The notes beneath the pieces were generated by a model. The model was not told where the DNA came from. It made no database searches and was given only the letters and a program-made list of their open reading frames with translations. Below are positions 14,931 to 25,575 of a stretch of DNA of 64,000 nt, piece after piece (the stretch's first letter is position 1; every line of letters starts with the position of its first letter). Made by a program: the position numbers and the translations under genes. Source of the stretch: Pseudo-nitzschia pungens (Eukaryota; Bacillariophyta; Bacillariophyceae; Bacillariales; Bacillariaceae); NCBI GenBank assembly GCA_037355855.1, contig CM074764.1:1240001-1304000 (forward strand), in the 5' to 3' direction.

Positions 14931-17900
14931 ATGACAGAGAAGGAACTCAATGTTGATATTTGTGTTACCTGTGTGTGCGAGAAGCCGCCCCAGCTTCCGC
15001 TTCGAGAAGAGTTGCCTAGTCTCGGAATTGAACTCGTTTACAATGCAAAGGGAGCTGGTGCGGAAGCCGCTGAAGAAGAAAGACAGAATGAAATAGAAAA
15101 AATCAAGAAAAAGAAACAACAACAGAATCTAAAAGAAGGAAAGAAAGCGGGAGGAGCAGCAAGATGGAAGAGGAGCACCCGCGATCCTCCTAGCAGATCT
15201 CCCTTTCCAGTGATTAATTTTAAATCTGGCAGACACAGCCACAAGGAAGATCCACCCGAAGATTTTCCAACGGCAAAAGCTCTTAGTTATGGAAAGTACC
15301 AACGGAAACTAGAGCTCCTAACCAATCCAGCGGTGGACGCATCGATATCAAGTACTTTAGAAACAACGTCAACTATGAACGAAAATTGTCCAAAAGAGAA
15401 GAAAGCGAAACGTGGAAAATTACTTGAATTGTTCAGTAGGAAAAAGAAGAATGAAGCAGACAAACCTCCAACGTCTGTAGAGATTCCAAATACGAAAAGC
15501 GCGGAAGATGCCGCCGTGCAAGAAGCTTTCAAAGCTTTCATGTCGAATGATGAAGATGATGTTCCAACAAAGGAGGCATTTGATGCACTTCCTCCGCCAA
15601 AACAAGAAGCCAAGCAAGCAGGAACTCTTTCCACAGAGAAGAAGATAGACGATTTTCCAGATTTGTTACCGGGCTCAAAAAACAATCCTGAACAAGTTGA
15701 TACAGCTTCATCTGCCGACACCAGGGACAGCGAGAGCGAGGGAGTACACGGTTTCTCGACGGAGCAGACTACAATCTCATCTCTTGGAGAAGATTCTTCG
15801 CAGTGGAAAAATGATGTTGTGAATGATGCAGAATCGTTTACGAAACGGGCAAAAGATATGTTGAAGAAGATGGCCGCTGAACGAGCGTTGACACCTTCTA
15901 GCGATGGAAATATCAAGGTCAAACTCTTGACTGAACAAGCTGACAAAAACCATATCACTGAGCTTTACGACCTGACTGAAGTTTCTGAGAATGGTAACGA
16001 TTATCTCCAGCGTAAAGGTTCCGGTATGGGAATGAGAGATGACGACTACAACCACAAAGATCAATACAATTCCTACACACATCAACAATTCGTTGCCGAA
16101 ACACAGCGTCAATTCCAAGATGTCTTCCCTGATAGTTCTGACAACGAAGTTGTTTATCTTGGTTCAGCAGCACCAAATTCCCCGTATGTATTTGATTTGG
16201 TCGACGAGGAAAGCAGTGTCCCATTGCCAGAAATTGACGATGAGCTCGGAAACCCCGTCATTGACTTAGCGGACGTGTATGAGGAAGATGGTCCAGGCTC
16301 GCCTCTAGTTCTCTCCCCCGTTCAGGTAAGGAGGACTGCTGACTCTTCCGCTTTCTCGCCTGCTTCCTTTCCAAAGTTTGAGCAAAAAGCAAAGCCAAAT
16401 CCTTTCCTTCCTTCTTTTTATCACAATGAGATGAGGAATAGTGAGATTCTCAATCAAGACAGACGGGATGATGTCATTGTTTATCGAGCCGAGAGTCAAT
16501 TGTCTCCCAATTTACGAGAAAAAAATACATCACCCCTTCGGTTGGATGTGGCTGACTCTTACCGCTCGCCATCAAATCGTGCTCGTAAACCAGGGATGAA
16601 AATGCCAACCTTTGACGAAGCAGTAAAGAAGTACTACGATTCTCGAGGTCAGAGTCATTTCCATTCCGTCTCTTCGTCGTCGCCCCATATTACTCCAGCC
16701 ATTCGGAAAAGTGTCTCTCGAGATTCACATGATAGTTCTAGAGTTCTGAAAGTCACTTTCTCGCAAGATGTGGAAGAACACTATTTCGAAAAGACTCATT
16801 TCAATGAGGAGAGAGTGCCTGGAGTGGAATCCTCACTGGCGGCTATCTTAAACGAAGAACAAGGTTTGAACGAACCACTTCCGTCGGCTCTCAGTCGAGA
16901 AGCGGACGAAGCCTTTCAATCCTTCGCAAATCAGTTGGAAGAGGAAGATGATTCACGCACGCCTCATCAGATGCTATTGGAAGCCCTTTCTTTTGGTGAT
17001 CCACTCCCATTTGATTTTGAGGAGACGATCCAACTTAATCCAAGTATAGCATCGAGAAGACTCCCAGATGCCGATACATTTGCATTGCACGCAGCCTGCT
17101 CGCGAGCGTTCCCAAAAAGATTTGGAAAGGACCAAACCTGTCGAATTAACGATTTGATCGATGATCTCGTGTTGCACAGAAAGCTCATAGAAGCTCTTGT
17201 TACCGTCGATCCTGAAACTTGTCGACGAGTTGACGAGAATGGAGATCTTCCTGTACACATTATGGCACGTCAGTTAATGGAATGGGAGGGTCGCTGGTAT
17301 CAAAAGGTTTATGACAAAGCAAGAAATAAAGATGAAGAGTCAGACAGTGTAGCTGGCATCACCAAACTATATCAATCGATGTCAGAATGCATCAATGTCC
17401 TTTTGCAACCGATCACAAAAGATGACGCTTTGTGTCTACAATCTGGAAGTGTGGGGCGGATATTGCCTTTACATATTGCTGCCATTTTCACAGTCCCGTA
17501 CAATACCCTTCGCTCGCTCTTGGAGACATTTCCAAATGCTGCCTCCACTAAGTGTGATTTGAGTAACATAAAAACTTTCGTTCCGAATTATTCAACCCCT
17601 CTTGAGCTCCATGACAGGCTTTCAACGGACTTTCCGAAATGGGAGATTCAAAAAGTGGATTTTCGACCAGATGAAGAAATGACGCAAACCATGCTCGATA
17701 TGGTTTATGGGACAACGAACGGAATCCGCAGATCCGATTTATTGTTTGCCTTCTTTCCGAAGTTGCTTCCTTATCGTAAGGAGTCATTCAGAATTCGTCG
17801 AATGGAACAAATGATTCAGAACGAGATGAAGTACAAAGATACAAGGGGTAACCATGTGTTGACACGCCCTGCCGAGGCATTTTGGATATGGTTATGTGAA

Positions 17901-19833
17901 TTTCAAGACAAGGAGGATGTCTCGGATCACTACGCCGAGAATGTTTTCAGGATTGTAAATCGCCTCCCATATCAAGCAGTACGGTTTTTAGCGTCGATAA
18001 ACGAAGGAGGGACTGCTGTACTCGATAGAGCAATACCTCCGTGCTCTGATGTCATCATGGAGAAATTGTACACGATTTCGACAACTGATATTCCCGTTCG
18101 TTTACCCTTGTCTTCAAGAGGAAGAATTGATGGTGCAGAGAAATCTCTTCTGCAACAATTTGACGAAGAAAACTCTAGGAGATTTCAACTACACGGGCAG
18201 GGCTTCGTTGGGTCGCTTTGTAGGACAATTTTCCATGTGCAAGAAACTACGTACCCGAGCAGTTTCGTCCTCCTCCCTTACAAACTTGTGAAGGATAACA
18301 AAGGTGGATTGGGTCTCGAATCTNNNNNNNNNNNNNNNNNNNNNNNNNNNNNNNNNNNNNNNNNNNNNNNNNNNNNNNNNNNNNNNNNNNNNNNNNNNNN
18401 NNNNNNNNNNNNNNNNNNNNNNNNNNNNNNNNNNNNNNNNNNNNNNNNNNNNNNNNNNNNNNNNNNNNNNNNNNNNNNNNNNNNNNNNNNNNNNNNNNNN
18501 NNNNNNNNNNNNNNNNNNNNNNNNNNNNNNNNNNNNNNNNNNNNNNNNNNNNNNNNNNNNNNNNNNNNNNNNNNNNNNNNNNNNNNNNNNNNNNNNNNNN
18601 NNNNNNNNNNNNNNNNNNNNNNNNNNNNNNNNNNNNNNNNNNNNNNNNNNNNNNNNNNNNNNNNNNNNNNNNNNNNNNNNNNNNNNNNNNNNNNNNNNNN
18701 NNNNNNNNNNNNNNNNNNNNNNNNNNNNNNNNNNNNNNNNNNNNNNNNNNNNNNNNNNNNNNNNNNNNNNNNNNNNNNNNNNNNNNNNNNNNNNNNNNNN
18801 NNNNNNNNNNNNNNNNNNNNNNNCTGATTTGAGACCTGAACTTCAGTCACAAATAGATTTCATTCCGCCCAAGGTGCTCAAAGCATTGTTGAATACAAAC
18901 GAAAGTACAAATGGAAGGAGCGATTTCTTTGATGACAAAGAATACGATAACCTGTTCGAAGACGATGATGCGAATGATGGGAGCAGCAAGATCACTGATG
19001 AAGGGGATAGTAATAGCAGCAGTGGGGAATATACCGAATCCACTTCAGAGGACGATATGCCTGGTATGATAATTACTACATCGGATAAGAAAAACTCTCG
19101 AAGTGTAACCAGTCAGTTATCAGATCAACACGATGATCAACCACCCGATCATCGGTTATCCGATCATCTTATTCATGATCATCTTATTGCTGATCAACAG
19201 CGACCAGATCCACCACCAAGAGGAATCCTTCGCAAAAGTGATGAAAGTGACGAAAGCGCACAAGCGATATCTGTTTCTACTGCTGAAGAATCGTTTGCGC
19301 TCCGCAGCGTTTTGAAACTACGATTTCAGTTGGATGAGCAAGAATCCAAATTAAAGTCGCTGCGAAAAAAAATTGTCGAGCTAGATACTGTGGGAGATCA
19401 ATTGATTCTGCAAGAAGAGAAAATCACCGACATGATTAGCGAAATCATTAATCAGAAGGATGAAATGTTGCAAAGCTCAACAAGTGACGGATTGATGAAG
19501 GCGAAAGCTTTGATGATGCGAATATGTGAACTTGAAGACCGTGTTCTATGTCGTGAAGTAGAAGTTGGTCAGCTGAAAAATGACGTTTCATTTTTTGAAC
19601 TAGAAGCATCCGATCAATCAGAGTCTAGTGGTGTGGATGACACAAATTTTTCTCGCAGTAGCGCAGGTACTGAGGATGATCCGGAAGACAACCTTGAATC
19701 GCCCGACGAGGATATCAACTCCGATCAGGGTGAAGATAGCACTGTGGGCAATAGCACCATGTACAACAGTAGCTGGGATGGGTATCCTGCTGGAACGGAA
19801 GGGTATAGTAGTACTGGAGTGTTAAATCAGTAG
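14931..19833 (+). CDS. Very large ankyrin-like repeat protein, interrupted by assembly gap
   Basis: An open frame of 1131 codons runs from the ATG at 14931 to the 500-N gap; another frame continues from the gap to a stop at 19833. The two are out of register across the placeholder gap, so the gap length is not true or an intron lies inside; joining them is inference. The N-terminal 60 residues include VDICVTCVCEKPPQLPLREE and a Lys/Glu-rich coiled coil. A long acidic, Ser-rich disordered region follows. At about residues 713-860 there are ankyrin-like units (DTFALHAAC, ENGDLPVHIMAR, GRILPLHIAAIF) in the divergent style common in diatoms. After the gap comes an acidic Ser/Asp region and a coiled coil (LRSVLKLRFQLDEQESKLKS through the QKDEM segment, 19300-19600). 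It is probably a scaffold or signalling protein; function unknown. Confidence 0.6.
18324..18823. other. Assembly gap of exactly 500 N
   Basis: A run of 500 undetermined bases, a round number typical of a placeholder. It interrupts the ankyrin-like gene. Confidence 0.99.
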
Positions 19834-24309: not shown

Positions 24310-25575
24310 TTATGCCTCGATAATGGAAGGAGCCTCCATTGCGACGGGAAGGACTTCACCAGACGCCAAATCGAGTGGGAAGTTGTGCGCGTTACGCTCA
24401 TGCATGACCTCCATTCCAAGGTCGGCACGGTTGATGATATCCGCCCAGGTGTTGATGACACGTCCCTCGGAGTCGATTACGGCTTGATTGAAATTGAACC
24501 CGTTCAAGTTGAATGCCATGGTAGAAACTCCCATAGCGGTCAACCAGATACCCAAGACAGGCCAAAGAGCCAAGAAGAAGTGGAGGGCACGGGAGTTGTT
24601 GAAGGAAGCGTATTGGAAAATGAGACGTCCGAAGTACCCGTGGGCGGCGACAATGTTGTAAGTTTCCTCTTCCTGGCCAAACTTGTACCCAGCGTTGGTA
24701 GATTCGTTTTCGGTGGTTTCACGAATCAAGGAAGAAGTTACGAGAGAACCGTGCATGGCAGAAAAGAGTGAACCACCAAATACACCGGCGACTCCGGCCA
24801 TGTGGAGTGGATGCATCAAGATGTTGTGCTCGGCTTGGAATACCAACATAAAGTTGAAGGTTCCACTGATACCAAGGGGCATGCCATCGGAGAAGCTTCC
24901 TTGACCGATGGGGTATGTGAGGAAGACAGCGGTAGCAGCAGCTACAGGAGCAGAAAAGGCAACGAAAATCCAAGGGCGCATTCCGAGGCGGTATGAGAGC
25001 TCCCATTCGCGTCCCATGTATGAGGCCACGCCGAGTAGGAAGTGCATCACGATCAACTGGTAAGGACCTCCGTTGTACAACCACTCATCCATCGACGCGG
25101 CTTCCCATACGGGGTAAAAATGCATTCCGATCGCGTTTGAAGAAGGAATGACAGACCCAGTGATAATGTTGTTTCCGTAAAGCAGAGATCCGGCGACAGG
25201 TTCGCGAATTCCATCAATATCAACCGGGGGCGCAGCGATGAAGGCCGTGATGAAGCAGGAAGCGGCGGCAAGGAGAGTTGGGAACATGATGGTACCGAAC
25301 CAACCGATGTAGAGACGATTGTCGGTGCTTGTGATCCAGTTCGAAAACTTTTCCCAAGTGGCCATCTCTCCCTTCTTCTCCACGTCGAGAGGAGTGAGAG
25401 TGGCAGCGTTCAACTGAGTCTCGAAAGAGTTTGATGCAATGTCATCTTGGATCACCGAAGGAGTGAAGACCTTGGAACCAGCAGTGCGACCGTGTGTGGA
25501 AGCCGACTTCGGTACGGTGAAAGCATCCGTGGTTGAGAGAAGAAGGGTTGCAACAAGAGAGAAGGAGCACTTCAT
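24310..25575 (-). CDS. psbA: Nuclear, plastid-targeted photosystem II D1 protein (psbA)
   Basis: Intronless, 421 residues from the Met that opens a signal peptide ([18 protein letters not shown], then FTVPKSAS), followed by a Ser/Thr/basic transit-like stretch to about residue 70; a Met 33 codons upstream lacks this logic. From [10 protein letters not shown] on it is a full-length D1; subtracting 60 gives standard D1 numbering. Conserved: TyrZ Y221 (Y161), D230 (D170), E249 (E189), H250 (H190), P680 ligand H258 (H198), iron ligands H275 and H332 (H215, H272), bicarbonate-site E304 and Y306 (E244, Y246), QB-pocket S324-F325 (S264-F265), and Mn ligands H392, E393, H397, D402, A404 (H332, E333, H337, D342, A344). 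D1 position 130 is Glu. A 17-residue C-terminal extension follows A404, as needed for CtpA processing. D1 carries the water-oxidising photochemistry of PSII in the thylakoid. psbA is normally plastid-encoded. Confidence 0.93.

What the first reader, a model, noticed from the sequence alone, without database searches (positions are those of the whole stretch)
24310..25575. Complete psbA (PSII D1) gene in the nuclear genome with a plastid-import presequence
Seen: the D1 frame is continuous with an N-terminal signal peptide and transit-like stretch ([18 protein letters not shown] then FTVPKSAS), sits between ordinary nuclear genes, and keeps every ligand of the Mn cluster, TyrZ, P680, QB site, non-haem iron and bicarbonate site, plus a 17-residue processable C-terminal extension. 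Known: psbA is one of the genes almost always kept in plastid genomes, because D1 turns over quickly and is inserted co-translationally. Inference: this is a functional endosymbiotic gene transfer of D1, or a second specialised D1 isoform imported post-translationally through four membranes. Many substitutions against a typical plastid D1 (for example Ala at D1 position 235 in STNAGYKFG) show it is not a fresh plastid insertion.
Basis: partly seen in the sequence, partly recalled or inferred. Interest (0 to 1): 0.96.

Follow-up and report, generated by a model that had tools for sequence, protein, structure and literature searches.

The report
Diatom nuclear gene for photosystem D1
A diatom keeps in its nuclear DNA a complete second gene for D1, the photosystem II core protein that chloroplasts normally encode themselves; the protein is predicted to be imported into the plastid and would likely work there as an alternative D1, and related genes from other diatoms form one family with it, which challenges the rule that D1 must be made inside the plastid.

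Summary
Confirmed and extended. Window 24310-25575 (minus strand) holds an intact, intron-free 421-codon D1 gene with a signal peptide-like start, an A|F junction and a transit-like stretch, on gap-free sequence with nuclear genes. The same assembly contains plastid contigs that still carry psbA, so this is a second D1, not a replacement. The two differ at 20 of 329 positions (D1 16-344); codon use is nuclear. It is no one-off: 44 further proteins of this kind came from public data, the named ones from Pseudo-nitzschia, Nitzschia, Epithemia, Amphora and Seminavis. In the tree the nuclear rows are one clade (100/96) within a group that holds diatom plastid D1: one transfer is the simplest reading. 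Cofactor ligands are kept. The residue before TyrZ is Thr/Asn in 40 of 40 "type 1" nuclear rows, Val/Ile in 44 of 44 plastid/cyanobacterial rows. A second nuclear type, not in this window, shares P162S, M172L, F186L, T286A and mostly G80A with cyanobacterial low-oxygen-type D1'. Import, assembly and conditions of use are inferred. My searches listed no report of a natural nuclear-encoded D1.

The parts
24310..25575 (-). nuclear psbA coding sequence, 421 codons plus stop, no intron
25522..25575 (-). signal peptide-like residues 1-18, ending ..TTDA before Phe19
   Evidence: hydropathy; Ala18-Phe19 invariant in 38 of 38 aligned relatives (of 45 rows)
25396..25521 (-). transit-like stretch, residues 19-60, start FTVPKSAS
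   Evidence: low conservation (presequence mean pairwise identity 34% in 40 type-1 rows)
24364..25395 (-). D1 region, residues 61-404 (D1 numbering 1-344); the ends of the precursor's processing are not known
   Evidence: alignment to 6jlu_A and to own plastid D1
24913..24918 (-). codons of Thr160 and TyrZ (Tyr161); 160 is Val in own plastid D1
24313..24363 (-). 17-residue C-terminal extension after Ala344, likely removed on maturation
   Evidence: extension aligned

Best explanation
This is an intact nuclear psbA gene of a diatom whose product is predicted to be imported into the plastid and would likely be built into working photosystem II as an alternative D1 beside the plastid-made one. 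Shown: the gene, its presequence, nuclear codon use, psbA kept on plastid contigs of the same assembly, one clade with related genes placed among diatom plastid D1, and kept ligands. Inferred: a signal peptide with an A|F junction leads the precursor across the ER-type outer membrane, then the transit stretch across the inner ones; the protein is inserted into the thylakoid, trimmed at Ala344 and used in PSII assembly or repair. Inferred too: it is used under particular conditions, as members of cyanobacterial psbA families are, and the polar residue 160 beside TyrZ would tune the donor side.
For: Intact 421-aa frame; 24 of 24 functional positions as in own plastid D1; A|F junction in 38 of 38 aligned rows; codon-use correlation 0.535 with nuclear and -0.031 with plastid reference, against 0.046 and 0.668 for plastid psbA; 197 third-position against 51 first- and 20 second-position differences from plastid psbA; 44 further proteins of this kind; nuclear rows one clade 100/96 within a 94/96 group that holds own plastid D1 and chains 6jlu, 6j3y, 8iwh; core identity mean 94% against 34% for the presequence in 780 pairs; six Epithemia copies with 331-333 of 333 core residues alike while presequences match at 54-69 of 69 columns; MMETSP-labelled members; engineered nuclear D1 with a transit peptide works in plants (PMC10458752, passages).
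Against: No transcript, protein or localisation of this strain was seen. The targeting call rests on hydropathy and a conserved motif, not on a predictor. Relatives' DNA was not at hand, so no dN/dS and no synteny. The plastid D1 is already enough for photosynthesis in most algae. One relative (P0031) has Glu189Gly, one (P0023) Thr179Gln, and P0090 has several changes.
Confidence: 0.8

Rival explanations
1. Dosage back-up: the nuclear copy makes an ordinary D1 with no special property, which supplements plastid synthesis when damage outruns plastid translation.
For: Ligands and the herbicide/QB positions examined are unchanged; nuclear D1 supplements work in transgenic plants (PMC10458752); Epithemia has six near-identical proteins.
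Against: Residue 160 is Thr/Asn in 40 of 40 type-1 rows and never in 44 plastid/cyanobacterial rows; a second nuclear type has 16 derived sites, which suggests specialisation.
Confidence: 0.3
2. Recent plastid DNA insertion (NUPT), pseudogene or scaffolding artefact.
For: Plastid contigs were in fact joined onto the end of this same scaffold, and plant nuclear contigs hold psbA frames that begin like plastid D1 (P0009 Musa, P0121 Vitis).
Against: Intact frame with a presequence, nuclear codon use, 20 of 329 residue differences, gap-free link to nuclear genes, relatives in independent assemblies.
Confidence: 0.02
3. Horizontal transfer from a cyanobacterium, phage or another alga, not from the diatom's own plastid line.
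For: With all columns the second nuclear type is drawn with cyanobacterial D1' (87; 100/97).
Against: The window's type 1 lies with diatom plastid D1. For type 2, leaving out 13 columns (chosen after seeing them) puts it inside type 1 (both types together 100/98), and even with all columns a tree holding both types together has a log-likelihood 8.74 higher (p-AU 0.647).
Confidence: 0.03
4. A D1 that does not evolve oxygen: a place-holder like the cyanobacterial dark ('rogue', sentinel) D1.
For: Such D1 isoforms exist in cyanobacteria (PMC4582080, passages).
Against: Rogue D1 is described by extensive changes around the water-oxidising complex and QB; here all examined ligands are kept, 1076 of 1080 cells in 45 rows, as is the C-terminal extension.
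Confidence: 0.05

Closest known systems
Plastid-encoded D1 (PsbA) of diatoms
   Same: 91% identical over D1 4-358 to the strain's own copy; same ligands and a 16-17 residue C-terminal extension
   Different: nuclear gene with a presequence, nuclear codon use, Thr160 and other changes
Nucleus-encoded plastid proteins of diatoms with bipartite presequence (ASAFAP-type, recalled)
   Same: signal peptide-like start, A|F junction, transit-like stretch
   Different: none known to me carries D1; the cargo is a five-helix reaction-centre subunit
Engineered nuclear psbA in rice, Arabidopsis and tobacco (PMC10458752, passages)
   Same: nuclear D1 with an added plastid presequence beside plastid psbA
   Different: man-made, one membrane pair to cross, no isoform change
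Cyanobacterial psbA families (PsbA1/2/3, D1'; PMC9709244 and PMC4582080, passages)
   Same: several D1 isoforms in one organism; residues near TyrZ/P680 vary
   Different: all genes in one genome; the window's gene has none of the D1' residues at 80, 158, 286
Nuclear plastid DNA (NUPT)
   Same: psbA letters in a nuclear chromosome
   Different: NUPTs keep plastid codon use and have no presequence (recalled); this gene differs in both

Membership tests
D1 / PsbA | Photo_RC domain | tested here: met
   PF00124 E 4.1e-85
D1 / PsbA | ligands of Mn cluster, TyrZ/His190, PD1, non-haem iron, QB and bicarbonate sites (roles recalled) | tested here: met
   24 of 24 positions as in own plastid D1
D1 / PsbA | processable C-terminal extension after Ala344 | tested here: met
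   17 residues; processing itself not tested
D1 / PsbA | assembles into oxygen-evolving PSII | not testable with these tools
   needs biochemistry
Nucleus-encoded plastid-targeted protein of diatoms | signal peptide with A|F junction and transit-like stretch | tested here: met
   no targeting predictor was at hand
Nucleus-encoded plastid-targeted protein of diatoms | protein reaches the plastid | not testable with these tools
   GFP fusion or proteomics needed
NUPT | plastid codon use, near-identity to plastid gene, no presequence | tested here: not met
Cyanobacterial microaerobic D1' | Ala80, Leu158, Ala286 (recalled signature; Ala286 of PsbA2 also in PMC9709244) | tested here: not met
   window gene has Gly80, Phe158, Thr286. 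The other nuclear type has Ala286 in 6 of 6 and Ala80 in 5 of 6 rows but Thr158

The most novel reading that the evidence does not exclude
Raphid diatoms moved a copy of psbA to the nucleus once, kept it as the group diversified, and re-evolved there a cyanobacterium-like set of D1 isoforms: type 1 with a polar residue beside TyrZ, and type 2 that converged on the low-oxygen D1' at sites near TyrZ and P680. Such cells run photosystem II with D1 from two genomes, a natural exception to the rule that D1 must be made in the plastid.
Probability: 0.55. Interest if true: 0.95.

Novelty: new variant of a known kind. Interest (0 to 1): 0.88.

Why it matters
psbA is a textbook case of a gene that stays in the plastid, explained by the hydrophobicity of D1, by redox control at the site of use, or by cotranslational insertion (recalled). 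A conserved nuclear D1 family whose hydropathy is almost unchanged (GRAVY 0.307 against 0.320 for plastid D1) lets these ideas be tested in a natural system. It bears on crop work with engineered nuclear D1, and on psbA as a plastid marker in environmental sequence, where such nuclear genes are labelled simply as D1. If type 2 is a low-oxygen D1, it is convergent tuning of the PSII core in a eukaryote.

Tried and rejected
Structure prediction from the 38-row alignment gave mean pLDDT 34.8 and was discarded; no fold search was run.

A further control, nuclear copies of psaA/psaB (PF00223), did not complete.

P0090 (74% identity, end branch 0.4; His252Gln, Asn298Asp, Asn338Tyr) was kept in the counts but left out of the tree and the type-1 counts. 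P0040 has a garbled N-terminus but was kept among the 45. Rows such as P0063, P0081, P0096 and P0098 have N-terminal extensions that did not look like signal peptides and were not counted; that choice was made by eye. Four short or odd plastid rows (C0075, C0076, C0112, C0113) and identical cores (5 nuclear, 1 cyanobacterial) were left out of the trees.

Recombination with a cyanobacterial D1' gene as source of type 2 was considered; the tree comparison does not require it (p-AU 0.647), but a short tract cannot be excluded without DNA of these loci.

The D1' hallmark list rests on 17 rows, 15 of them found by searching with type 2 itself, so the overlap of 8 of its 10 sites with the 16 sites derived in type 2 (hypergeometric P 1.6e-10) is biased upwards; only 5 of the 8 have the same residue. 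Less biased is: of 11 sites unique to four Thermosynechococcus rows, 3 (80, 172, 286) are shared by all 4 type-2 rows then known; of 40 type-1 rows none shares 172 or 286 and one shares 80. My note says 27 D1'-like rows; the right number is 26.

Full report
What is there. The minus strand of window 24310-25575 encodes a 421-residue D1 in one open frame, from the first ATG of that frame. Residues 1-18 are signal peptide-like, followed by Phe19 and a transit-like stretch; D1 homology runs from about residue 64 to 418. D1 position = protein position minus 60. All 24 functional positions examined equal the strain's own plastid D1 (their roles are recalled). The 17-residue C-terminal extension is kept.

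Where it is. The window is C7:1240001-1304000 of a 66.88 Mb assembly in 28 contigs. One 500-N gap lies at 18324-18823; the gene is on the gap-free side with Sec7, Sec63/DnaJ, sulfate permease and TrmE/MnmE genes. The nearest long ORFs have no Pfam hit. The closest named relative is from Pseudo-nitzschia australis, 93% identical. A published P. pungens assembly of 67.11 Mb with 12 chromosomes and 62 scaffolds (PMC11499653, passages) is near in size, though not in scaffold number; that the window is P. pungens is an inference.

The plastid still has psbA. Three copies giving an identical 360-aa D1 lie at C7:4.88-5.05 Mb. The stretch read, C7:4.86-5.06 Mb, has mostly low GC (0.27-0.47 per 2.5 kb), long repeated and palindromic blocks at about 99% identity, and seven 500-N joins. 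I read it as plastid contigs scaffolded onto the end of a nuclear pseudo-chromosome. So the nuclear gene is an addition. It differs from the plastid protein at 35 of 357 positions compared, 20 of them in D1 16-344, with 51, 20 and 197 nucleotide differences at codon positions 1, 2 and 3. Codon use correlates 0.535 with eight window ORFs and -0.031 with 20 plastid ORFs; plastid psbA gives 0.046 and 0.668.

Controls on other genes. The D1 search found psbD-like places at 33% identity on C7 5.16 and 5.19 Mb and C5 5.94 Mb, and PF00421 (psbB/psbC) found five places, on C7 (4.91, 5.15, 5.19 Mb), C5 5.94 Mb and the start of C23. The C5 and C7 5.15-5.19 Mb places have psbC next to psbD, as plastids do (recalled), and low GC where read (L005, L006 0.33). 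I read them as plastid; their wider surroundings and C23 were not read. The psaA/psaB search did not complete.

It is a family. From I picked, by eye, 45 proteins of this architecture, the window's own included. Named ones: Pseudo-nitzschia australis, Nitzschia inconspicua (3.5 Mb contig), six from Epithemia clementina (contigs of 0.18-1.18 Mb), Amphora, Seminavis robusta. NCBI taxonomy puts Pseudo-nitzschia, Seminavis, Amphora and Epithemia in Bacillariophycidae, in three orders; that these are raphid is recalled. P0021, P0035 and P0067 bear MMETSP transcript labels. Ala-Phe at the junction is invariant in the 38 rows aligned. Core identity averages 94% over 780 pairs of 40 type-1 rows, presequence 34%. 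Listings are capped at 120 rows and most rows are unnamed, so absence from other diatoms is not shown.

Origin. In a tree of 83 rows the 39 nuclear rows are one clade (100/96) in a group (94/96) with own plastid D1, chains 6jlu, 6j3y and 8iwh (diatom chains, recalled) and four unnamed plastid-type rows; order within that group is unresolved, and the chosen outgroup was not one side of a branch. A tree of 79 rows with P0090 also has the nuclear rows as one side (99/99). One transfer from the diatom plastid line is the simplest reading.

What differs. Residue 160, before TyrZ, is Thr (31) or Asn (9) in 40 of 40 type-1 rows and Ile or Val in 44 of 44 plastid and cyanobacterial rows. Thr35 is in all 44 nuclear rows and in 3 of its plastid/cyanobacterial rows. 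Of 1080 functional cells in 45 rows, four differ (P0031 Glu189Gly, P0023 Thr179Gln, P0090 two). Mature hydropathy is nearly that of plastid D1 (0.307 against 0.320).

A second type. P0067, P0068, P0071 (Amphora) and P0122 (Seminavis), and P0131, P0132 and P0150 (Amphora), share Thr158, Ser162, Met163, Leu172, Leu186, Ala286 and Leu289. P0131 and P0132 end differently after D1 329, and P0150 has an odd N-terminus. The search with four of them brought 26 further rows with Ala80 and Ala286; those that are named are cyanobacterial. In six type-2 rows the D1' residue is shared at 80 (5 of 6), 162, 172, 186 and 286 (6 of 6), a third residue stands at 158, 293 and 328, and 192 and 336 are not changed to the D1' residue. 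In Thermosynechococcus psbA2 is the microaerobic gene, and Ala286 loses an H-bond to PD1 (PMC9709244, passages). With all columns the free tree draws type 2 with D1' (100/97); without 13 columns chosen afterwards it lies inside type 1 (100/98 for both types, 98/87 with one type-1 row); and with all columns the tree that holds both nuclear types together scores 8.74 log units better (p-AU 0.647). I read this as convergence; the sampling bias is told under Tried and rejected. Amphora has both types (P0035; P0071, P0150).

How it most likely works. Shown: gene, presequence, conservation, ancestry. Inferred: import across the four membranes round a diatom plastid, insertion in the thylakoid, trimming at Ala344, use in PSII assembly or repair beside plastid D1, under conditions not known. 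Nuclear psbA with a transit peptide raised photosynthesis in rice, Arabidopsis and tobacco (PMC10458752, passages), so post-translational supply of D1 is feasible. In the non-photosynthetic diatom Nitzschia putrida psbA is listed among missing plastid proteome genes (PMC9054022, passage); the passage does not say of which genome.

Is it in print? The searches listed nothing on a natural nuclear-encoded D1 in diatoms. Beyond listings I saw only passages of eleven papers (in PMC12691652 the terms did not occur) and one section. That section, of the N. inconspicua genome paper (section 8), reports no evidence of recent organelle transfer among targeted genes and does not mention psbA in the nucleus. 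Subscription journals and preprints were not searchable, so priority is not settled.

Noticed in passing
P0067, P0068, P0071, P0122, P0131, P0132, P0150 (other diatoms, not this window): A second, more diverged nuclear D1 type that shares residues 162S, 172L, 186L, 286A and mostly 80A with cyanobacterial D1' of low-oxygen type.
   Followed up: partly
P0027, P0029, P0034, P0037, P0038, P0041 (Epithemia clementina): Six nuclear D1 proteins on three contigs, cores 331-333 of 333 alike, presequences more different: recent duplication or gene conversion.
   Followed up: partly
own genome C7:4.86-5.06 Mb (L008-L027): Redundant plastid contigs appear to be joined by 500-N gaps onto the end of a nuclear scaffold; psbC/psbD places on C5 5.94 Mb and a psbB/psbC-family place on C23 suggest the same there.
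   Followed up: partly
window 18324-18823: A 500-N scaffold join with open frames on both sides (14931-18323 and 18824-19833).
   Followed up: no
P0131, P0132: Type-2 frames end in TEGTPHSIKLIRRND after D1 Glu329, perhaps an unspliced intron, so the last Mn ligands are not seen.
   Followed up: no
P0090: A fast-evolving presequence-type D1 of unnamed source with changes at 252, 298 and 338.
   Followed up: no
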